From a virus, in the IMG/VR virus record IMGVR_UViG_3300000115_005958, positions 2,063-37,241 of that record: a DNA stretch of 35,179 nt, one strand, 5' to 3'. How positions within the stretch are numbered: the first letter of the stretch is position 1; every line of letters begins with the position of its first letter. Shown here piece after piece: positions 5,162 to 34,448 of this stretch. Made by a program: the position numbers and the translations under genes. Below the pieces are notes generated by a model, which worked only from the letters and a program-made list of their open reading frames with translations, had not been told where the DNA came from and made no database searches.

Positions 5162-5629
5162 TTATGGGGTACATTGATATACGGAAGTAATAACTCCTAA
5201 AGCATTAGTTTGAATAACTATATTTTCAGCTAAACCACTAGGAGGAGGACCAAAAGTTGATATATTTGTAGGGAGATATAAAGCTCCAGTAGAAATTATA
5301 GCTCCAACATTATCTTTAAAAGTATCACCTACTTCTGGGAAATTGTTGGTAGATGTATTTCCTGAACCTTTAACAAGTTTTCCGTTAGCATTATCAGTAT
5401 CACCTTGAGTACCATTACAAGCTTGTGCTGCCTTAACATTACCCGTGGTTTCTCCATATGCCTTAGGATATTCAGTAACATTTGAATAACCATAAAAATC
5501 TGATATAGCATCTGGGGCTGCAAATCCTGCAGTATCACTAAAGGTACCTAAAGATTGATTAGTAGCTGATTCCCCTAATTCAACCCTAATATCATTTATA
5601 CTTAAAGGTCCTGTAGTTGGTAAAGTCAT
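5162..5629 (-). CDS. Putative tail-fibre-associated protein (155 aa)
   Basis: The N-terminus, LPTTGPLSINDIRVELGES, matches a short module common in phage virion proteins in which P-x-x-G-x-(I/L)-S-x-x-D-I precedes E-(L/F)-G, followed by an aromatic ISDFYGYSN segment. The remainder is Gly/Thr/Asn-rich and beta-like with two cysteines. The stop of the 957-residue fibre gene and this start share base 5629 (TAATG), so translation is coupled. That places it as a fibre cap, connector or second fibre protein. The structural role is inferred from the N-terminal module and the neighbour. Confidence 0.62.
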   Translation of the reverse strand: MTLPTTGPLSINDIRVELGESATNQSLGTFSDTAGFAAPDAISDFYGYSNVTEYPKAYGETTGNVKAAQACNGTQGDTDNANGKLVKGSGNTSTNNFPEVGDTFKDNVGAIISTGALYLPTNISTFGPPPSGLAENIVIQTNALGVITSVYQCTP

Positions 5630-8502
5630 TATACTTTAGATTTAAGTTCGTCGATTTGTTTTTGTTGTTCCTTAATTGCTTCAATTAATAGTGGAACAAT
5701 TTTTTCATAATTAACGGCCTTATATCCATTATCTCTTGTAGTAACAGCTTCTGGTAGTATTTCTTCAATTTCTTGGGCTATTACACCTACATCTCTACCT
5801 GTATTACCATGTATAGTTTTTATTTCTTCTTGGTTTAATTCTTTCCAATCAAATGTATTACCACTTACACCAATTACTTTACATAAAGCATCATTAATTG
5901 GTTGGATATTTTCTTTTAATCTTCTATCTGATGTTGAAAATGCTACAACATCATTTGTTGCATCAATTCTACCTACTGTTGAACTTAAAGAAAGACTGTC
6001 TTTTCCTACTGTTAATGAACCTGTTATAATAGTATTATTCATGTAAGTAGTGTTGGTTTGACCTGCTGAAATGCAACTACCTATAATATGACTATTACTA
6101 AAATCTTCAACTGTATTACAAATACCTCCTAAAATACTTGAATTACAGGATGTATTAATAAGATTACCACAACCTCCTCCTATAAAATTAGTACAAGTTA
6201 TTCCTTCAGCTGTAGTGGATTTAATTCCATTACAACAACCTCCTGCTATAGAACTATATGATTGTGATATTATACAATGATCTTGTCCTCCTCCTATACT
6301 AGATGCATTTGATGAAAAAATTTCTAAATCATTACCACCTCCTATAAAGCTAAAAGTTGAATAGCAAATCTGTGATGCTCCACCAGTATTAACTATAGTA
6401 TTAACATTCCCTTTATATATTCCTCCACCTTTAGTATTACCTATTCCCACAAATGAGAAATTTGCACCTTCTATTACATTACCATATCCACCACCGATGA
6501 AACCACCACAAGAGGAAGAAATTATATTTTCTCTCCCACCTACTATAGAATTCATGCTATTAAGAGATCCTGTGATAATATTAGTAAATCCACCTCCAAT
6601 AAAAGAACCAGTAGCTCCAGCTCCAGAAGAATTATTAGAACCAAATTTAATTATATTACCTTTACCTCCAGCAATAGTACTGTGACAAGAATTAGCTGCC
6701 ATAATGTGATCCTCACCAAAGGTTGATATTCTATTATTTAATCCTTGAAATCCAACTCTATCATTACATATTTTAGATTCTATACTACCAAAATTTGATG
6801 AACCATTAACTCTTAAATGTGAATCAGCGGTTGCAGTTGTAGATCCACCTGATATAACATCGATAATACCATTATCATCTGCTAAATCTCCTATTAATAA
6901 ACTTGCTCCATTACTTTGAATACCACTTTTAGCTTGAAATTGTAATGCACAAGTTGTTGGGTTAAATGTTAAATCAGCTTTGGCACATGCTGTATCTGTT
7001 GATGTACCATCTGCTGTTAGTATTCTATTAGTATCTGGTGTGAAAACTGTATCAAATCCCGTTCCTGATGTCCCCGAAGAACCACTTGATCCTGATGAAC
7101 CTGAAGAACCACCTGCACCTGAAGATCCTGATGAACCTGAGCTACCTGATGAACCTGATGATCCTGATGAACCACCTGCACCTGATGAACCACTTGATCC
7201 TGATGAACCTGAGCTACCTGATGAACCTGATGATCCTGATGAACCACCTGCACCTGATGAACCACTTGATCCTGATGAACCTGATGAACCTGATGAACCT
7301 GAAGATCCCGAAGAACCACTAGAACCTGAAGATCCACTTGAACCTGATGAACCTGATGAACCACTTGAACCTGATGAACCTGATGAACCACTTGAACCTG
7401 AAGATCCTGAAGAACCACCTCCTCCACCTGCAGGTAAAGTTACTGTCTTAACATTCACTGCTGTAGGGTGACCTGTTGCATTTTGTGTAATAGAATCTAT
7501 TACTGTAAAAGTACCGCCTGCAACAGGAGAATCTGTAGATGTTGTGTCTGTTCTTGTTGTATCCTCATGATCATATGTTACCTCAAAGTTATTAGCGGTG
7601 GGATTGGTAACGGCAACATCTATATAGGTCCCATTATTAAAAGTAACCCTATCATCATCAACTACATCAAATTGACCTTCTCCCGGACCATTTATAATCC
7701 ATGAAGACATAGTACCAGAACCTGATGAACCACTTGAACCTGAAGATCCCGAAGAACCACTAGAACCTGAAGATCCACTTGAACCTGATGAACCTGATGA
7801 ACCACTTGAACCTGAAGATCCCGAAGAACCACTAGAACCTGAAGATCCTGAAGATCCTGAAGAACCTGATGAACCTGAGCTACCACCTCCTCCACCAGTA
7901 ATAGTTACTGTTATATTATCTGGTGTAGGTTCTGTAACAGTAGCACCTACAAAATTGATAGATTCTACATCTACAGTTAGTGAAGATCCATCATCTAAGA
8001 TTTCAACAGCTTGTCCACTACCTGATGAACCACTTGATCCTGATGAACCTGAGGATCCTGATGATCCTGATGAACCTGAAGAACCACCTGCACCTGATGA
8101 ACCTGAAGATCCACTTGAACCTGATGATCCTGAAGATCCTGAAGAACCTGAAGAACCACCTGCGCCTGATGAACCTGATGATCCTGATGAACCTGAAGAA
8201 CCACCTGCACCTGATGAACCACTTGAACCTGATGAACCCGAAGAACCACTTGAGCCTGCAGCTCCAATAGTTGTTTTAAAAACTTGACCTGTAGTGTTAT
8301 TATATGATAAATAATGGGTTTGTGCTGTTGATAATAACTTACTAGGGTCAATATACATTGAACCTGTTAAAGTTGAAGAACCTGATATTGTTATATCGTA
8401 AGGTTCTGCTCCTGTAAAAGCATCAACAGATTGAGAGACATGCCATGATTGGATTATCTTACCTTGTTGTATTTCTGATTGGTATTTAAATAGTTTTGCC
8501 AT
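5629..8502 (-). CDS. Collagen-like tail fibre with YadA-like head and S74 chaperone domain
   Basis: A 957-residue protein with clear modular order. Residues 1-80 are a probable attachment domain. Three Gly-Ser-Ser triplet tracts (coded by 8017-8260, 7713-7899 and 7066-7430) alternate with two small beta domains and are interrupted by GAGG. Residues about 600-825 carry repeats of the type S-x-I-x-GGG-x-x-N-x-I (FIGGGFTNII, FIGGGYGNVI, SIAGGCCNGI), resembling the left-handed beta-roll heads of YadA-type trimeric adhesins. From about 855, DRRLKENIQPI through GVIAQEIEEILPEAV and a helical tail is the peptidase S74 intramolecular chaperone, which trimerises fibres and then cleaves itself off. The likely role is a trimeric host-binding fibre. 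A late-type box lies 18 nt before the start. Confidence 0.88.
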   Translation of the reverse strand: MAKLFKYQSEIQQGKIIQSWHVSQSVDAFTGAEPYDITISGSSTLTGSMYIDPSKLLSTAQTHYLSYNNTTGQVFKTTIGAAGSSGSSGSSGSSGSSGAGGSSGSSGSSGSSGAGGSSGSSGSSGSSGSSGSSGSSGAGGSSGSSGSSGSSGSSGSSGSSGSGQAVEILDDGSSLTVDVESINFVGATVTEPTPDNITVTITGGGGGSSGSSGSSGSSGSSGSSGSSGSSGSSGSSGSSGSSGSSGSSGSSGSSGSSGSSGSGTMSSWIINGPGEGQFDVVDDDRVTFNNGTYIDVAVTNPTANNFEVTYDHEDTTRTDTTSTDSPVAGGTFTVIDSITQNATGHPTAVNVKTVTLPAGGGGGSSGSSGSSGSSGSSGSSGSSGSSGSSGSSGSSGSSGSSGSSGSSGSSGSSGSSGAGGSSGSSGSSGSSGSSGSSGSSGAGGSSGSSGSSGSSGSSGSSGAGGSSGSSGSSGSSGTSGTGFDTVFTPDTNRILTADGTSTDTACAKADLTFNPTTCALQFQAKSGIQSNGASLLIGDLADDNGIIDVISGGSTTATADSHLRVNGSSNFGSIESKICNDRVGFQGLNNRISTFGEDHIMAANSCHSTIAGGKGNIIKFGSNNSSGAGATGSFIGGGFTNIITGSLNSMNSIVGGRENIISSSCGGFIGGGYGNVIEGANFSFVGIGNTKGGGIYKGNVNTIVNTGGASQICYSTFSFIGGGNDLEIFSSNASSIGGGQDHCIISQSYSSIAGGCCNGIKSTTAEGITCTNFIGGGCGNLINTSCNSSILGGICNTVEDFSNSHIIGSCISAGQTNTTYMNNTIITGSLTVGKDSLSLSSTVGRIDATNDVVAFSTSDRRLKENIQPINDALCKVIGVSGNTFDWKELNQEEIKTIHGNTGRDVGVIAQEIEEILPEAVTTRDNGYKAVNYEKIVPLLIEAIKEQQKQIDELKSKV
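7066..7430. repeat. Gly-Ser-Ser triplet tract 3 of the fibre
   Basis: About 365 bases of degenerate 9-base units (plus-strand form cctgatgaa/cctgaagat/ccacttgat) encode GSS collagen-type triplets with GAGG breaks. It is the longest of three tracts. Synonymous serine codons vary between units, and blocks are duplicated exactly. Confidence 0.85.
7124..7267. repeat. Exact 72-bp tandem duplication in the fibre gene
   Basis: Bases 7124-7195 and 7196-7267 read identically by eye, including the rare gagctacc and cacctgcacc variants. The unit is 24 codons, so the frame and triplet register are kept. This points to recent slippage or unequal recombination. Confidence 0.85.
7713..7899. repeat. Gly-Ser-Ser triplet tract 2 of the fibre
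   Basis: About 187 bases of the same 9-base units as the other tracts. Bases 7736-7815 are identical over 80 bases to 7295-7374 in tract 3, so sequence has been copied between tracts. Confidence 0.85.
8017..8260. repeat. Gly-Ser-Ser triplet tract 1 of the fibre
   Basis: About 244 bases of 9-base units encoding GSS triplets, interrupted by GAGG (cacctgcacc and cacctgcgcc on the plus strand). This tract is nearest the N-terminus of the fibre. Confidence 0.85.
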
Positions 8503-28316: not shown

Positions 28317-29027
28317 TTAAAATCGGGCGTAACCATTTTCTAAGAAAAATATATATTGTTGTTTAAATATATCATAAAGTTTATCAGCAATTTTAGTAAT
28401 TTTAGGAGTCTTAACATCTACCATTTCACGAATATAGATATAAAGTGCCTTTTTATTAAATACTTCTAATGTTTCTCTTTTACGAAATAATTCTAAAATA
28501 GCATCGGCTATTTGTGCATCATTTTTCTTTGGAAATAATTCATATATGTTTTCTGAGACATGGTCCACAAATATATCAACATATCTATCTAAATCACTTT
28601 TAATTTTTTCATCTCCTTGAGAATAAGTGTGAGTAGAATTTTCTCCTGTAAGTATATCAACATCTACCTTTTTTATTTTTTTATTATAATTTTTAGTATT
28701 GTATAATATTAACCAACGTTTGACTATAGTACCAAAATAAGAATATGCTTTAGCACCTCTACCTGGGTCAAATAAGTGTATTTTAGATAATAAAAAGGTA
28801 ATTATTTCATGTTGGAGGTGTTCTAAATTTTCAACATCAGTATGATAAAATTTAAAAGTATGAATAATATTTTGTGTAAGCTTAAAAAACGCGAAATGTA
28901 TTTCACGTTCATATATTTTAGATCTAATTTCGGAACATTTAGTATTATTATATAATACTATAGCATCTTCTGTATCTTGAGTAAAATAATTTTTACTTTT
29001 TTTTCTTCTTTTTCTGACTTCGGCCAT
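28317..29027 (-). CDS. gp55: Late-transcription sigma factor, gp55-like
   Basis: A 236-residue protein with the T4 gp55 pattern: a basic start (RKRRKKSKNYFTQDTEDAI), helices with REIHFAFFKLTQNIIHTFKF, a sigma region-2-like core (HEIITFLLSKIHLFDP, then KAYSYFGTIVKRWLI) at about residues 70-112, and a longer C-terminal part than T4 gp55 (185 residues). gp55 directs host RNA polymerase to late promoters together with the sliding clamp. Seven exact late-type boxes before virion genes here fit such a factor. Its start is coupled to the membrane-anchored gene before it (shared base 29027). Identification from motifs; DNA specificity inferred. Confidence 0.85.
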   Translation of the reverse strand: MAEVRKRRKKSKNYFTQDTEDAIVLYNNTKCSEIRSKIYEREIHFAFFKLTQNIIHTFKFYHTDVENLEHLQHEIITFLLSKIHLFDPGRGAKAYSYFGTIVKRWLILYNTKNYNKKIKKVDVDILTGENSTHTYSQGDEKIKSDLDRYVDIFVDHVSENIYELFPKKNDAQIADAILELFRKRETLEVFNKKALYIYIREMVDVKTPKITKIADKLYDIFKQQYIFFLENGYARF

Positions 29028-29305
29028 TAATTATTATTTTTTTTAAATTGGGATAAATCATTTTGGATTATTTTTATTTCATTAAAAAACCATCCTATTT
29101 CATCATCACTTTTAAAGGCACCTCTGGTGTCAATTTCTTTTAATTTTTGATTTGAAAAAGTAATGTGTTCATCTATTTTATTAATAAATTCTTGATGTGA
29201 AACTAATATATCTTCTGCTTTTTCATTTTTTCGTAAAAGGTTAAAGGTCGTATATCCTAAGATAACGACCAAAATTCCTAATATAATTGTAAAAGTTAAT
29301 ATCAT
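29027..29305 (-). CDS. Membrane-anchored small protein (92 aa)
   Basis: A 92-residue protein. Residues 2-22 (LTFTIILGILVVILGYTTF) form one N-terminal membrane helix. A basic stop-transfer stretch (LLRKNEKAED) and a soluble coiled-coil-like tail (INKIDEHITFSNQKLKEID ... WFFNEIKIIQNDL) follow, probably in the cytoplasm. There is no cleavage site and no lipobox. It overlaps the HD-domain gene by four bases and shares a base with the gp55-like gene. I recall similar proteins next to gp55-type genes in marine T4-like phages, function unknown. An inner-membrane role in lysis timing or host takeover is possible but not shown. Confidence 0.75.
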   Translation of the reverse strand: MILTFTIILGILVVILGYTTFNLLRKNEKAEDILVSHQEFINKIDEHITFSNQKLKEIDTRGAFKSDDEIGWFFNEIKIIQNDLSQFKKNNN

Positions 29306-31359: not shown

Positions 31360-31833
31360 TTATTTAAATTTATTACCAATTAATATAATATTATCTTTTG
31401 CTTCTTCCAAACTAATATGGAAAAATTCTTTTCTGTTATTAACTCTAAAAGCTTTTAATTTTTCATGAGTCATTCTTTCTACCATTTCACCATTAAAACA
31501 TTTATAAGCCCATTCCACTTTATAAGGTGTAGGAACACCAGTAGCAGATGATATTTGGGTTGCTCTTTCTTCAGGTTTTAATTTAGTATATCCAATTTTT
31601 AGATATTCTTTGGGTAATGAAGGATTCGATAATACATATACCCATTGATCTCCTTCACCTTGATCGGCATAAAGCCCATATTTTTTTTCGGTATAATACG
31701 TTACATCTTCCCATCCCTCACCTCGTTCACTTGGGGTGATGGTAAAGAAAGCTGCGTTTTCAATACCGGTATTTCCATAATTTTCTTTTAACGGAATAAA
31801 CTTTTTAGCTTCTGTATTTGTTAATCTTTTCAT
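31360..31833 (-). CDS. T5orf172 (GIY-YIG superfamily) domain protein
   Basis: A 157-residue protein. Residues 66-140 follow the T5orf172/MUG113 pattern: WVYVLSNPSLPKEYLKIGYTK, then RATQISSATGVPTPYKVEW, YKCFNGEMVERMTHEKL (a Glu and His in the active-site region) and the closing NRKEFFHISLEEA. This family is a divergent branch of the GIY-YIG nucleases and includes phage DNA-binding or nicking proteins. The first 60 residues form an extra acidic domain. Its start overlaps the lipoprotein stop by four bases (ATGA). It is expressed with the early-type genes, which suits a nuclease acting on host or competing DNA. Activity not shown. Confidence 0.8.
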   Translation of the reverse strand: MKRLTNTEAKKFIPLKENYGNTGIENAAFFTITPSERGEGWEDVTYYTEKKYGLYADQGEGDQWVYVLSNPSLPKEYLKIGYTKLKPEERATQISSATGVPTPYKVEWAYKCFNGEMVERMTHEKLKAFRVNNRKEFFHISLEEAKDNIILIGNKFK

Positions 31834-32447
31834 TCGAATATAATTTTAAATTCATTTTCTATTTCTATATTATTTGGAAATATTGTTTTAATAAGTACTT
31901 TAGCAGTATCTCCTACCATTTGGTTATCAAAAAATAATTGCTGTTGAGGTTTATAATTATATTTACTATAAGTTCCTAAACTTTGAATGTCTGAATTAGG
32001 GTTATATGAATATCCTGCTATATTTAAAGGGGGAAAATTTTGGGCCATATCTTCAATAGTATAAGTAGTATTACCAATGGGAATGGGATTAATATACCCA
32101 CCACCTGTAAAATATCCTAATACACTATATAAGGGTACAGTAAATGTTATACTATCAATCCAAACCCAGTAATCAGAATCAAATATAGTTTCAATTAAAG
32201 GTACATCATTTACCACATAATCAGGATGTAATTCACTAATATTACCTTTTAAAGTAAAATATTGAATACCTTGATGTGAAATATGCCAATATTCATTAAT
32301 ATCTTGGTATATTCCTGGTGATACTAATGGATCTATTGCAAATTCTACATTACAATCCCCATTTAAGCAAGGGTAAGGTGAAATAAGCTCCTCTGGGCTA
32401 CACGCCCAAAGGAAACTTATTAAGGTTATGTATAATAACTTTTTCAT
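31830..32447 (-). CDS. Phage-encoded lipoprotein with Bacteroidota-type surface signal
   Basis: A 205-residue protein with a clear type II signal peptide: MKK, a hydrophobic core and the lipobox LWAC, with lipidated Cys16. The next residues, SPEE, place two acids at +3 and +4, similar to the short acidic export signals that send Bacteroidota lipoproteins to the cell surface. The mature part is beta-rich and aromatic, with no enzyme motif. Two more cysteines are close together (PCLNGDC) and may form a disulphide. It lies in the early-type operon and is coupled to the DUF932 fragment by TAATG. Early expression plus a surface location would fit superinfection exclusion or receptor masking; this is inferred. 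Confidence 0.82.
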   Translation of the reverse strand: MKKLLYITLISFLWACSPEELISPYPCLNGDCNVEFAIDPLVSPGIYQDINEYWHISHQGIQYFTLKGNISELHPDYVVNDVPLIETIFDSDYWVWIDSITFTVPLYSVLGYFTGGGYINPIPIGNTTYTIEDMAQNFPPLNIAGYSYNPNSDIQSLGTYSKYNYKPQQQLFFDNQMVGDTAKVLIKTIFPNNIEIENEFKIIFE

Positions 32448-32908
32448 TATGCTACAAATTCTAATGCTTTACTAAACATTTTTTTATTTACGTCTTGGTC
32501 TTGTTTGAAATTTTTAATAACTCGAGCTTGACGTTTTTTCCCTGTTTTTGTAATATATTCGAAATTACCTTCAATAATATTCTCCTGAACACGATTAAAT
32601 ACTTCCCAAAGCATATTTCCTTCATCTGCTTTTCGTTGAGCTTCTAAAACTTCCTCAATTGCTTGATCATCAAAGGTATTTTCCGTACCTTCTACTCTAA
32701 TATCTAGAAACGATTTAGCAAGATCAAACATTTGCTCTTCTTGTAATTCAACTTCTTTCATCTTATTCATTGCTTCAACAGTTAAAGGTAATCTTTCAAC
32801 CATCTCTTTAATAGTATCTTGTAAAGTTGAAAAATCATAACCCATATGACGGATTTTTACATCTTCAAATGTATCTGTAGCTATAACTAAACCATTTTCA
32901 CAAATCAT
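32447..32908 (-). CDS. DUF932-like protein, C-terminal fragment after a frameshift
   Basis: A 153-codon frame starting MICENGLVIATDTFE, the conserved middle of DUF932 proteins (RxxCxNGL). It is the direct continuation, in a different frame, of the 116-codon gene before it: upstream in this frame the DNA still encodes NSHDGKNSFQ and TAGLFR, which belong to the same domain. The apparent ATG is therefore an internal Met, although its ATGA overlap with the previous stop could allow reinitiation. DUF932 proteins are widespread in phages and plasmids, with unproven function. The rest is helical and acidic with a basic end (TGKKRQARVIKNFK). Confidence 0.7.
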   Translation of the reverse strand: MICENGLVIATDTFEDVKIRHMGYDFSTLQDTIKEMVERLPLTVEAMNKMKEVELQEEQMFDLAKSFLDIRVEGTENTFDDQAIEEVLEAQRKADEGNMLWEVFNRVQENIIEGNFEYITKTGKKRQARVIKNFKQDQDVNKKMFSKALEFVA

Positions 32909-33255
32909 TCTAAATAATCCAGCTGTAAATTGGAATGAATTTTTACCATCGTGAGAATTGTAAGTAATACTTGTGGATAAACAGTATCACCATCTTCACC
33001 ATTAATAACAACATCATTATTTCTAAAAACAACTAAATGCTTTTGAAAACCATTTGTTGACTCTTTTCTTGATTGAACTTCTTTAGCATCAACAACTCCC
33101 CAACCTAATAATTCCATATCTTTGATCACTTGATCAGTTGGAATGTGGGTGTACTTATCACTTGTATTTTCTGAACCAACTTGGGTAAAAATACTTGGAG
33201 CGATTTCTCTTAACTCTTCTAAACTCTTAAACTCTTGACTTTCGTAATTTAACAT
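32905..33255 (-). CDS. DUF932-like protein, N-terminal fragment before a frameshift
   Basis: A 116-codon frame starting MLNYESQEFKSLEELRE with the leader AAATAAAGGTATG. It contains the DUF932 N-terminal region (IPTDQVIKDMELLGW, FQKHLVVFRNND) and reaches GDTVYPQVLLT. After this it departs into about 17 unrelated residues and stops, whereas a one-base shift back at about 32959 continues the domain as NSHDGKNSFQ in the next frame. One base appears to be missing. It is the first gene after composite promoter C and leads the operon with the lipoprotein. Whether the break is real or an assembly error cannot be told from sequence alone. Confidence 0.72.
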   Translation of the reverse strand: MLNYESQEFKSLEELREIAPSIFTQVGSENTSDKYTHIPTDQVIKDMELLGWGVVDAKEVQSRKESTNGFQKHLVVFRNNDVVINGEDGDTVYPQVLLTILTMVKIHSNLQLDYLE

Positions 33256-33301: not shown

Positions 33302-33341
33302 GTGAATATACGAACCCTATCCCGGGAAGCCAAGCCTCCCG
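33302..33341 (-). promoter_or_regulatory. Composite hairpin-promoter C (early type)
   Basis: Minus strand TTG 33333-33331, 20 nt, then TATATTCAC 33310-33302. The TTG is the triloop of an 8-bp hairpin (33323-33330 with 33334-33341, one G-U pair) of sequence CGGGAGGCTTGGCTTCCCG. It lies 46 nt before the DUF932 start and about 15 bases after the stop of the gene at 33356. Confidence 0.72.
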
Positions 33342-33355
33342 TACATTACTTTCGA

Positions 33356-33706
33356 TTACTTTTTAAACAATAAACTTGGTGAAACTCTCATTTGTGCTCC
33401 TACTCTCCCATTACCTGGATTAAGTTTTTCAACACCAATATTTTTAGAATTAATTTTGTAAATTCTAAATTGATCTTTAGGATTAATTTTTTTATGGTTA
33501 ATTCCAACCACATCCCCAATTTGGAAATCATCTTTAGTTACTTTTACTACCTTTTCACCTTTTCGAGCTGTCATTTTAGATCTTAACTCACTTCCATCAA
33601 AACTGATAGTACCTAATGAAATATTACAACCATACTGCTCTTCTAATTTAGCAACTGCTAATTGAAAATCACTTCTAAACTCTTTAACATTTTGTCTATT
33701 AAACAT
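33356..33706 (-). CDS. Small phage protein with SH3-like tail (116 aa)
   Basis: A 116-residue basic protein. FNRQNVKEFRSDFQLAVAK through QYGCNISLGTISFDGSELR resembles a family of short phage proteins that I recall only as hypothetical. The second half (FQIGDVVGINHKKINPKDQF, then YKINSKNIGVEKL) looks like a small SH3 or KOW-type barrel, often used to bind nucleic acid or protein. It is monocistronic, between composite elements D upstream (33754-33785) and C downstream. Leader AAATAAAGGTTATG supports the start. Confidence 0.75.
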   Translation of the reverse strand: MFNRQNVKEFRSDFQLAVAKLEEQYGCNISLGTISFDGSELRSKMTARKGEKVVKVTKDDFQIGDVVGINHKKINPKDQFRIYKINSKNIGVEKLNPGNGRVGAQMRVSPSLLFKK

Positions 33707-33753: not shown

Positions 33754-33793
33754 GTAAATATACGAACTCTATCCCGGGAAGCCAAGCCTCCCG
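33754..33793 (-). promoter_or_regulatory. Composite hairpin-promoter D (early type)
   Basis: Minus strand TTG 33785-33783, 20 nt, then TATATTTAC 33762-33754. The hairpin 33775-33782/33786-33793 is identical in sequence to that in element C, with TTG as its loop. It starts nine bases after the stop of the papain-like gene (33803) and lies 47 nt before ATG 33706. Confidence 0.74.
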
Positions 33794-33802
33794 TGCATTA
33801 CT

Positions 33803-34336
33803 TTAACTTACTTTATAAGCACTATTTACTTTACGTGTTAGACGCTTATCATCTCTCCAATTACCTTTTATTACACCATCTATAAGAGCAAATGCATGTC
33901 CTTTTACTGTAATAATATAATTACCTTCACTATGTGCTTTAACAAATTCATTTACTTTATAAGGCACTTGTATTACCTCACGTTTAGTTACCCATTTACC
34001 CTTAGCATTGCTCCATTTTTCAACCTTAGATTTCTGATCGCGGGTGAGATATCTGTAATCACTATTATATTTACCTCGCTTACCCAATTGCTTAATCTTG
34101 CAACCGAACGCTTGTTTAACCTTAGGCAGGTAACGGTGAGTATAAGTACCATCACCAGATTTACGGTGCAATTTCATCTCACAAAAATGGTGTGCTTTAA
34201 TATAATCAATATCAAATGCATGTGATACAGCTCTTACTACACAATCATTTTCTTCTTTATCAGATAACATTGAAGATGCTTCAGGAATACCATATTTTGT
34301 AATTAATCGTTGTGCTTCTGTTCTCTTGTAACTCAT
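33803..34336 (-). CDS. Papain-like fold cysteine-peptidase candidate (177 aa)
   Basis: A 177-residue basic protein. The start is set at 34336 (MSYKRTEAQR), preceded by AAATAAAGGTTATATG; the 26 codons before it in frame overlap promoter E and are not expected to be translated. ENDCVVRAVSHAFDI places Cys32 at the start of a helix. GHAFALIDGVIKGNW places His147 before two strands and Asn159 after them. The order Cys-helix ... His-strand ... Asn is the papain-like arrangement (compare C39 or transglutaminase-like domains). It might cleave or deaminate a host protein early in infection. Catalysis not shown; the fold is inferred from pattern alone. Confidence 0.65.
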   Translation of the reverse strand: MSYKRTEAQRLITKYGIPEASSMLSDKEENDCVVRAVSHAFDIDYIKAHHFCEMKLHRKSGDGTYTHRYLPKVKQAFGCKIKQLGKRGKYNSDYRYLTRDQKSKVEKWSNAKGKWVTKREVIQVPYKVNEFVKAHSEGNYIITVKGHAFALIDGVIKGNWRDDKRLTRKVNSAYKVS

Positions 34337-34373: not shown

Positions 34374-34405
34374 GTAAATATACGAAAGATATCTCCGGTA
34401 GCCAA
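34374..34405 (-). promoter_or_regulatory. Composite promoter E (early type) with weakened hairpin
   Basis: Minus strand TTG 34405-34403, 20 nt, then TATATTTAC 34382-34374, 37 nt before ATG 34336. The loop sequence AGGCTTGGCTACC is kept, but the two outer stem pairs seen in A, C and D are lost (34395-34396 against 34412-34413). No minus-strand gene lies directly upstream that would need a terminator. Confidence 0.7.
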
Positions 34406-34438
34406 GCCTCCCATACATTACTTTATTTTTTCTTTTAT

Positions 34439-34448
34439 ATATTTATAA
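34439..34448 (+). promoter_or_regulatory. Late-type promoter box on the plus strand
   Basis: Exact ATATTTATAA on the plus strand, in TATATATTTATAATAAAATA, 15 nt before ATG 34464. It is the only copy pointing right and precedes the only plus-strand gene, so the box keeps its orientation relative to the gene. Confidence 0.62.

What the first reader, a model, noticed from the sequence alone, without database searches (positions are those of the whole stretch)
31830..32447. Early-expressed lipoprotein with a surface-export-like CSPEE start
Lipobox LWAC is followed by SPEE, similar to the acidic signals that place Bacteroidota lipoproteins on the outside of the cell. A small beta-rich surface lipoprotein made from an early-type operon is a good candidate for superinfection exclusion, blocking the receptor or DNA entry of a second phage. 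No homologous exclusion protein is recognisable by eye.
Basis: inference. Interest (0 to 1): 0.55.

Follow-up and report, generated by a model that had tools for sequence, protein, structure and literature searches.

The report
Phage lipoprotein gene hiding RNA hairpin
A bacterial virus carries a gene for a small fat-anchored surface-type protein, possibly one that keeps rival viruses out, and the letters that spell its membrane-anchor signal also form a strongly conserved RNA hairpin that appears to belong to the gene before it.

Summary
The lipoprotein is real: a 205-aa minus-strand ORF with lipobox LWAC-16, then SPEE. Homologues occur in many IMG/VR phage contigs, in the cultured Flavobacterium phage immuto and, rarely, in Bacteroidota chromosomes. 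It is accessory (25 of 46 informative loci chosen by another gene). Family libraries and PDB sequences give no match above noise; the model is mostly beta and Ig-like, with no convincing enzyme or virion match. Superinfection exclusion remains a reasonable but untested guess (about 0.35).

In relatives the stem survives while amino acids change on both sides of the lipid Cys (W/P, L/K, L/Q). One relative lacks the acidic motif but keeps the hairpin. The hairpin goes with the upstream DUF932 gene rather than with the lipoprotein: it follows DUF932 whatever gene comes next, and lipoprotein copies that do not overlap DUF932 mostly lack it. Best reading: a 3'-end hairpin of DUF932 written into the next gene's signal-peptide codons, like protective operon hairpins of E. 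coli. So SPEE cannot be read simply as an export signal.

The parts
31830..32447 (-). lipoprotein gene, 205 aa; accessory phage gene with rare chromosomal homologues
32403..32447 (-). signal peptide codons 1-15, ending in lipobox L-W-A
   Evidence: translation; residues -3..-1 in homologues: FWA 32, VFS 23, LWA 17 of 114
32400..32402 (-). codon of the lipid-type Cys16
   Evidence: present in 114 of 114 scorable distinct homologues
32388..32399 (-).
32383..32420 (-). hairpin inside the coding sequence: up to 16 pairs (9 inner pairs best supported), 5-nt loop GTGTA at 32399-32403; read here as the 3'-end hairpin of the upstream DUF932 gene
32352..32369 (-). CxxGxC motif (Cys27, Cys32), a likely disulfide
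   Evidence: 111 of 114 distinct homologues have it near the lipid Cys
32447..33255 (-). DUF932 gene (Pfam PF06067), broken by a frameshift in this record into ORFs 33255-32905 and 32908-32447; its stop overlaps the lipoprotein start (TAATG)
31360..31833 (-). T5orf172/MUG113 GIY-YIG nuclease gene overlapping the lipoprotein stop by 4 nt
   Evidence: E 2.2e-16; optional neighbour
33302..33372 (-). 71-nt repeat (hairpin plus TTCGTATATT) before DUF932; promoter-like; further copies at 33754-33824 and 34374-34444

Best explanation
The gene encodes an accessory phage lipoprotein, by its type an outer-membrane one, that comes and goes behind the DUF932 gene and is shared with bacterial chromosomes. 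Shown: lipobox in all scorable homologues, accessory distribution; predicted: beta sandwich. Inferred: it sits in the outer membrane and binds a host surface protein, most likely to limit superinfection (about 0.35 by itself). Its lipobox and SPEE codons double as a stem-loop that serves the preceding gene: when DUF932 and the next gene overlap, a hairpin starting about 25 nt after the DUF932 stop is written into that next gene by codon choice and, where needed, by amino-acid choice. Shown: selection on the hairpin and its tie to DUF932 in these phages. Inferred: in mRNA it blocks 3'-5' exonucleases, so that DUF932 message outlasts the lipoprotein and nuclease part of the transcript.
For: Hairpin: most stable 45-nt window on the coding strand, windows every 2 nt (-24.0; mean -4.2, sd 2.9); z -6.1 against dinucleotide shuffles. 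Covariation on 31 distinct sequences: 93.8% of cells paired against 38-57% when slid by 1-3 columns; 28 cells changed on both sides, 0 of 500 shuffles as high. Synonymous recoding reached native stability in 0 of 1000 (window) and 0 of 500 for each of L034, L103, L108, L112, L077, L078, L267; four immuto-clade controls gave 43, 132, 22 and 115 of 300. Tie to DUF932: a hairpin of -15 kcal/mol or better near the DUF932 stop in 43 of 44 distinct lipoprotein-bearing loci of the window clade and 18 of 19 loci without the lipoprotein, where other genes or intergenic DNA carry it. Behind LP, T5orf172, p67, p143, p60, HD, p92, p118 and the gp55-like gene in the same clade it is 0-7%, at random positions 4%. 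In cultured phage immuto the lipoprotein lies 12 kb from DUF932 and lacks the hairpin, while the gene overlapping DUF932 has one (-18.1; 0 of 500 recodings). L267 keeps the hairpin (-24.9) with SWMGIDD in place of SPEE. Lipoprotein.
Against: No expression, 3'-end, localisation or infection data. Two of the five covariation measures do not exceed shuffles (pairs with changes on both sides 128 of 500, pair types 159 of 500), and RNAalifold alone keeps 9 of the 16 pairs. L246 lacks a strong hairpin behind DUF932 (-10.0). Of 8 annotated-phage DUF932 genes tried (of 23 records found), immuto and CRP-235 stand clearly and XbC2 barely above local background; five do not. p116 ends also carry hairpins in 84% (the repeat element) and in the immuto clade p92 67% and p60 38%, so hairpins are not unique to DUF932. 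L236, whose lipoprotein lies away from DUF932, still folds at -16.5 at its lipobox, and L082, whose DUF932 ORF ends 776 nt before the lipoprotein, has the lipobox hairpin. Nothing links the protein directly to exclusion.
Confidence: 0.6

Rival explanations
1. The hairpin is an intrinsic terminator or attenuator that lowers transcription of the lipoprotein and nuclease genes.
For: The consensus scan lists it as terminator-like when 11 inner pairs are counted (3 such sites in the region against 2.2 expected). L237, L243 and L268 have T runs inside comparable hairpins.
Against: With the whole stem counted, 1 of 44 lipoprotein-bearing loci and 3 of 19 loci without it have 5 or more T in the 8 bases behind it.
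Confidence: 0.2
2. The hairpin acts in DNA, as a recombination, replication or homing-nuclease site at the junction where genes are swapped in and out.
For: The place behind DUF932 gains and loses genes, with a T5orf172 nuclease often near; such nucleases are reported at boundaries of genetic exchange (passages of PMC10448857).
Against: The hairpins differ in sequence between loci, and loci without the nuclease (L216, L218, L222) carry them as well as loci with it (L212, L217, L225).
Confidence: 0.12
3. The lipoprotein is not an exclusion factor but a ligand-binding or envelope lipoprotein that helps the infected cell or the bacterium carrying it.
For: Chromosomal copies exist in stretches where I saw no phage structural genes by eye; Ig-like sandwiches are common binding domains.
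Against: Such copies are rare: 2 of 397 genomes of the family and 5 of 398 of the genus after dropping one marginal hit; at most 7 first-look candidates per genome were scored.
Confidence: 0.3
4. It is the outer-membrane half of a lysis spanin, partnered by the nearby 92-aa protein with an N-terminal hydrophobic segment (29027-29305).
For: That protein lies about 2.5 kb downstream in the same co-directional block.
Against: Size and predicted fold differ from the outer-membrane spanins I recall; the lipoprotein was not found in 21 of 46 informative loci chosen by the HD gene of that block; chromosomal copies.
Confidence: 0.06
5. It is a virion component attached to tail or baseplate.
For: It lies upstream of the structural block on the same strand; the second BFVD row is a baseplate hub (E 8e-4, but TM 0.28).
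Against: Signal peptide and lipobox in every scorable copy; accessory distribution; the fold match is weak.
Confidence: 0.04

Closest known systems
Protective 3' hairpins embedded in the downstream coding sequence of E. coli operons (PMC5927463; galE hairpin in galT, PMC11925234; passages read)
   Same: Stable hairpin, mostly without a T tract, shortly after the upstream stop, inside the next gene, conserved in relatives, with constraint on synonymous sites
   Different: Here in phages; starts about 25 nt after the stop (107 +/- 56 nt into the gene in E. coli); goes with one upstream gene while hairpin sequence and downstream gene change; overlaps a lipobox and couples amino acids. No RNA ends mapped
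Superinfection-exclusion lipoproteins Llp (T5) and Rtp45 (Rtp) (PMC9586334, PMC12685063; passages read)
   Same: Small phage-encoded lipoproteins of the outer membrane; a disulfide is mentioned for Llp and Cor
   Different: About 190 residues mature against about 61 (Llp) or about 6 kDa (Rtp45); no PDB sequence match below E 0.6; no receptor known; other host phylum
Bacteroidota lipoprotein export signal (PMC5080379; passages read)
   Same: Acidic residues at +4/+5 behind a polar residue
   Different: Pro, not Lys, at +3 and Ser, not Gln, at +2; the same codons are under selection for the hairpin
Flavobacterium phage immuto gp122 (NC_055915, annotated hypothetical protein)
   Same: Homologous lipoprotein (41.7% over 172 residues), next to a T5orf172 gene and upstream of an HD gene and the baseplate genes
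   Different: Nuclease gene upstream instead of downstream; DUF932 12 kb away; no lipobox hairpin (L163)

Membership tests
Bacterial lipoprotein | Signal peptide ending in a lipobox with Cys at +1 | tested here: met
   LWAC in the window; Cys kept in 114 of 114 scorable distinct homologues; lipidation itself not testable here
Bacteroidota surface lipoprotein (export signal) | K-(D/E)2 or Q-A-(D/E)2 just behind the Cys | tested here: inconclusive
   Window CSPEE is near but not exact; 9 of 114 exact K-(D/E)2; confounded by the hairpin
Superinfection-exclusion lipoprotein (Llp/Cor/Rtp45) | Sequence or fold relation to a known member | tested here: inconclusive
   No PDB sequence hit; none seen among the fold rows listed, which does not exclude it
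Superinfection-exclusion lipoprotein (Llp/Cor/Rtp45) | Blocks a phage receptor when expressed in the host | not testable with these tools
   needs an infection assay
Protective operon hairpin in downstream coding sequence | Hairpin more stable than background, inside the downstream gene near the upstream stop | tested here: met
Protective operon hairpin in downstream coding sequence | No uridine tract behind it | tested here: met
   5 or more T of 8 in only 1 of 44 lipoprotein-bearing loci; the looser scan, which counts T of the outer stem, disagrees
Protective operon hairpin in downstream coding sequence | Conserved structure and constraint on synonymous sites | tested here: met
Protective operon hairpin in downstream coding sequence | Mapped RNA 3' end at the stem and excess of upstream mRNA | not testable with these tools
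   needs term-seq or 3' RACE
Intrinsic terminator | Stem followed by a U tract | tested here: not met
   on relatives of the window clade; but
Known Rfam family | Match at gathering score | tested here: not met
   0 matches in the window; three sub-threshold rows over the stretch

The most novel reading that the evidence does not exclude
A protein sorting signal is shaped by an RNA element of another gene: in these phages whatever gene overlaps the end of DUF932 must write a DUF932 3'-end hairpin into its first codons. In the lipoprotein this couples amino acids on both sides of the lipid Cys (W with P, L with K, L with Q), so that the apparent export signal is partly an RNA by-product, with the hairpin setting the DUF932 to lipoprotein ratio.
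Probability: 0.5. Interest if true: 0.65.

Novelty: new variant of a known kind. Interest (0 to 1): 0.5.

Why it matters
If true, short sorting motifs behind the lipid Cys of phage (and perhaps bacterial) lipoproteins cannot be read as export signals without checking for overlapping RNA structure, and amino-acid covariation may report mRNA pairing. It also offers a natural test of operon hairpins: one upstream gene, several unrelated downstream genes, different hairpins at the same place. The lipoprotein itself is a testable exclusion candidate in a cultured phage-host pair (immuto and Flavobacterium sp. LMO8).

Tried and rejected
Led nowhere: family scans of the lipoprotein (Pfam, PHROGs, NCBIfam, PADLOC: only sub-threshold rows); PDB by sequence; fold searches, which give generic Ig-like sandwiches (best Foldseek PDB row E 6.9e-4, TM 0.40, a p53-like domain; enzyme rows such as a mannanase at E 3.4e-3, TM 0.29; best VIA Z 8.0 over 98 residues; best BFVD E 5.4e-4, TM 0.26), so no family is claimed or excluded from them. 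Promoter patterns of sigma-70, Bacteroidota and T4-late type were not enriched.

Considered and weakened: a functional pair of lipoprotein and GIY-YIG nuclease. A T5orf172 gene lies within 5 kb in 62 of 80 window-clade loci (49 of the 62 start within 3 nt of the lipoprotein stop) and in 55 of 62 immuto-clade loci (44 upstream, 11 downstream; 5 of the 7 misses begin within 200 nt of a contig end). Weak GIY-YIG-like ORFs lie near four chromosomal copies: L120 E 0.015, L119 E 0.15, L133 E 0.017, L136 E 1.7e-4, all below Pfam's cut-off. But in loci chosen by the HD gene the two do not co-occur more than chance: both 15, lipoprotein only 10, nuclease only 9, neither 12 of 46 (Fisher p 0.37).

Dropped rows: G556 (E 7.7e-4) as a different, 334-aa protein. 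L103 is the one failure of 44 because its DUF932 ORF is split; its hairpin is in the usual place. The covariation alignment took the window and 30 of the 41 distinct sequences: six in a shifted register were aligned apart and five near-copies left out. L078 scored only z -1.2 because the piece given ended inside the stem. The 19 lipoprotein-less loci are the 21 minus two without a found DUF932.

Rejected: that the hairpin is a chance product of the protein sequence; that it belongs to the lipoprotein as such (immuto-clade and chromosomal copies lack it; model R1 found no strong copy away from the lipoprotein in the window, in 74 loci chosen by HD, or in 50 immuto-clade, chromosomal and immuto loci, best other row E 0.1).

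Paper searches for prior reports; in the listings and passages I saw, none describes this protein family or this hairpin. Only open-licence PMC papers are held.

Full report
Names. 'Window clade' is the set of 80 IMG/VR loci; 'immuto clade' is the 62 further loci (L137-L198), one of which (L163) is immuto itself. I did not look up habitats. p67, p143, p60, HD, p92, p118 and 'gp55-like' are my labels for window ORFs 31153, 30695, 30394, 29302, 29027, 27923 and 28317.

Observation. ORF 31830-32447 (minus strand) encodes a 205-aa protein starting MKKLLYITLISFLWAC-SPEEL. Relatives: 49 IMG/VR loci from the single sequence, 187 stretches from a profile of 19 sequences, best 80 kept, 189 from a profile of chromosomal and immuto copies, best 80 kept. 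In the annotated phage collection only the four immuto records match at E 1 or better (41.7% over 172 residues). In bacterial genomes it is rare: 5 loci in the GTDB collection, of which L117 carries the phage block and L118 lies among housekeeping-type genes; 2 of 397 genomes of the family of L120 and, after dropping one marginal hit, 5 of 398 of its genus, one genome being in both (at most 7 candidates per genome were scored).

Protein. All 114 distinct sequences with a complete start carry a lipid-type Cys, 111 carry a CxxGxC motif close behind it, and 102 of 114 have two or four further Cys, which fits an oxidising, extracytoplasmic place. The AlphaFold2 model on 38 sequences is mostly beta (mean pLDDT 84, pTM 0.70; the five models range from 65 to 84). 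Fold searches give generic Ig-like sandwiches. Pfam, PHROGs, NCBIfam, PADLOC and PDB sequences give nothing above noise.

Genome context. In the window clade the order is DUF932, lipoprotein, often a T5orf172 nuclease, then p67, p143, p60, HD, p92 and a gp55-like gene; in 70 of the 75 loci with a found DUF932 its last base is the first base of the lipoprotein ORF. In the immuto clade the nuclease is upstream in 44 of 62 loci and downstream in 11. Sampling by HD instead shows that the lipoprotein is accessory: 25 of 46 informative loci. Loci without it join DUF932 to the nuclease with the same one-base overlap (L200, L203, L246) or hold other genes. The immuto protein is 73% identical to a chromosomal copy (L131) but 41% to the window's, so phages and chromosomes appear to exchange it. 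Chromosomal neighbours vary: divergent WYL-type regulators (L136; L132 below cut-off), transposase-like genes (L134, by eye), a TerB-like ORF (L133, below cut-off) and weak GIY-YIG-like ORFs.

The hairpin. A terminator scan pointed to a stem inside the gene. It covers the codons of the lipobox and SPEE: AAGTTTCCTTTGGGC-GTGTA-GCCCAGAGGAGCTT. It is the lowest-energy 45-nt window of the coding strand. In the window clade the stem persists through protein change: TGGGC-GCCCA (W..P), CTTGC-GYAAG (L..K), CTGGC-GCCAG (L..Q), and a shifted register in LASC-SKEE and LASC-TSEE. On 31 distinct sequences 93.8% of cells pair and 28 cells change on both sides; slides of 1-3 columns drop to 38-57%; three of five measures beat all 500 shuffles, two do not. 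Synonymous recoding with the window's codon usage never reached the native energy for the window (1000 draws) or seven relatives (500 each), whereas four immuto-clade lipoproteins look ordinary. L267 has SWMGIDD behind the Cys yet folds at -24.9.

Whose hairpin? In the immuto clade and in chromosomal copies the 39 nt around the Cys fold at 0 to -12.1 kcal/mol; the one genome-collection record with the hairpin, L117 (-21.3), is a phage contig. In ten lipoprotein-bearing loci of the HD sample, copies overlapping DUF932-type junctions give -20 to -25 (L204, L206, L213, L244, L267), while copies separated from DUF932 (L214 -6.4, L251 -10.2, L236 -16.5) or with a hairpin in the space before them (L254 -10.6, L220 -13.3) give less. 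A strong hairpin follows the DUF932 stop in 43 of 44 distinct lipoprotein-bearing loci (median start +25) and in 18 of 19 lipoprotein-less loci (median start +13, range -22 to +90), inside T5orf172 (L200), inside a nucleotidyltransferase-like gene (L216, L222) or between genes (L256, L258, L259); recoding tests give 0 of 500 for L200, L222 and L216. Nine other gene ends in the window clade show it in 0-7%; p116, whose end is the repeat element, in 84%. In immuto the gene overlapping DUF932 (gp158) carries one (-18.1, 0 of 500). Of seven remoter phages tried, CRP-235 is clearly and XbC2 barely above its surroundings, five are not. Few loci have a T tract behind the stem, and no Rfam family matches.

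Reading. This fits the protective hairpins described for E. coli operons, of which 17 of 26 lay within the downstream gene and which lacked a U tract (passages of PMC5927463), and the galE hairpin in galT (passages of PMC11925234). The probable consequence is a DUF932 message more stable than the lipoprotein and nuclease part. That step is inference.

Back to the finding. SPEE is encoded by the 3' arm of this stem, so its constancy in the window clade is not independent evidence for an export signal. Still, 35 of 44 immuto-clade and 10 of 10 bacterial-genome copies have two or more acidic residues at +2..+7 against 6% and 12% of six-residue stretches elsewhere in the same proteins, so surface export stays plausible. 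Exclusion is a fair guess because the protein is accessory, exchanged and envelope-directed, and because of the precedent of Llp and Rtp45, but nothing here tests it. I put it at about 0.35.

Noticed in passing
window 32447-33255: The DUF932 gene is broken by a frameshift in this record; the close relative L053 (94.5% identical DNA over 831 columns) has it intact. Sequencing error or recent inactivation cannot be told apart.
   Followed up: partly
window 33302-33372, 33754-33824, 34374-34444; also near 1027, 1350, 4095: Repeated 71-nt element (hairpin plus TTCGTATATT) in front of genes; the exact 13-mer TTCGTATATTTAC is in 61 of 280 fetched loci, many of them overlapping copies: a likely phage promoter family.
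   Followed up: partly
window 31360-31833: T5orf172 nuclease matches PADLOC PDC-S57 (3.8e-23) and, more weakly, PD-Lambda-1 (1.9e-9), alias SNIPE, a nuclease that cuts phage DNA during injection (PMC13190303, passages); T5orf172 genes are also described as homing endonucleases. Role here open.
   Followed up: partly
slot between DUF932 and p67/p143 in L216, L218, L222, L237, L243, L265, L268: Variable slot: nucleotidyltransferase-like, glycosyltransferase-like and other genes (by eye); L265 has an unrelated 186-aa lipoprotein-like ORF (SCNKIDDDG) there.
   Followed up: no
L133 1534-3291: 585-aa ORF divergent from a chromosomal lipoprotein copy: weak N-terminal GIY-YIG (E 0.017) plus a region matching PADLOC DpdC (5.5e-8), recalled as part of a DNA-modification system.
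   Followed up: no
L082 around 680-1560: DUF932 ORF ends 776 nt before the lipoprotein, yet the lipobox hairpin is kept; whether the ORF is broken was not examined.
   Followed up: no
window 29027-29305: 92-aa protein with an N-terminal hydrophobic segment and charged rest, conserved in the block; possible inner-membrane spanin.
   Followed up: no
window 5629-8502: 957-aa protein with long Gly-Ser-Ser repeats and a C-terminal part that looks, by eye, like a tail-fibre autoprocessing domain.
   Followed up: no
immuto-clade loci, ends of p92 and p60: Strong hairpins also follow p92 (67% of 39) and p60 (38% of 29) in the immuto clade but hardly in the window clade.
   Followed up: no
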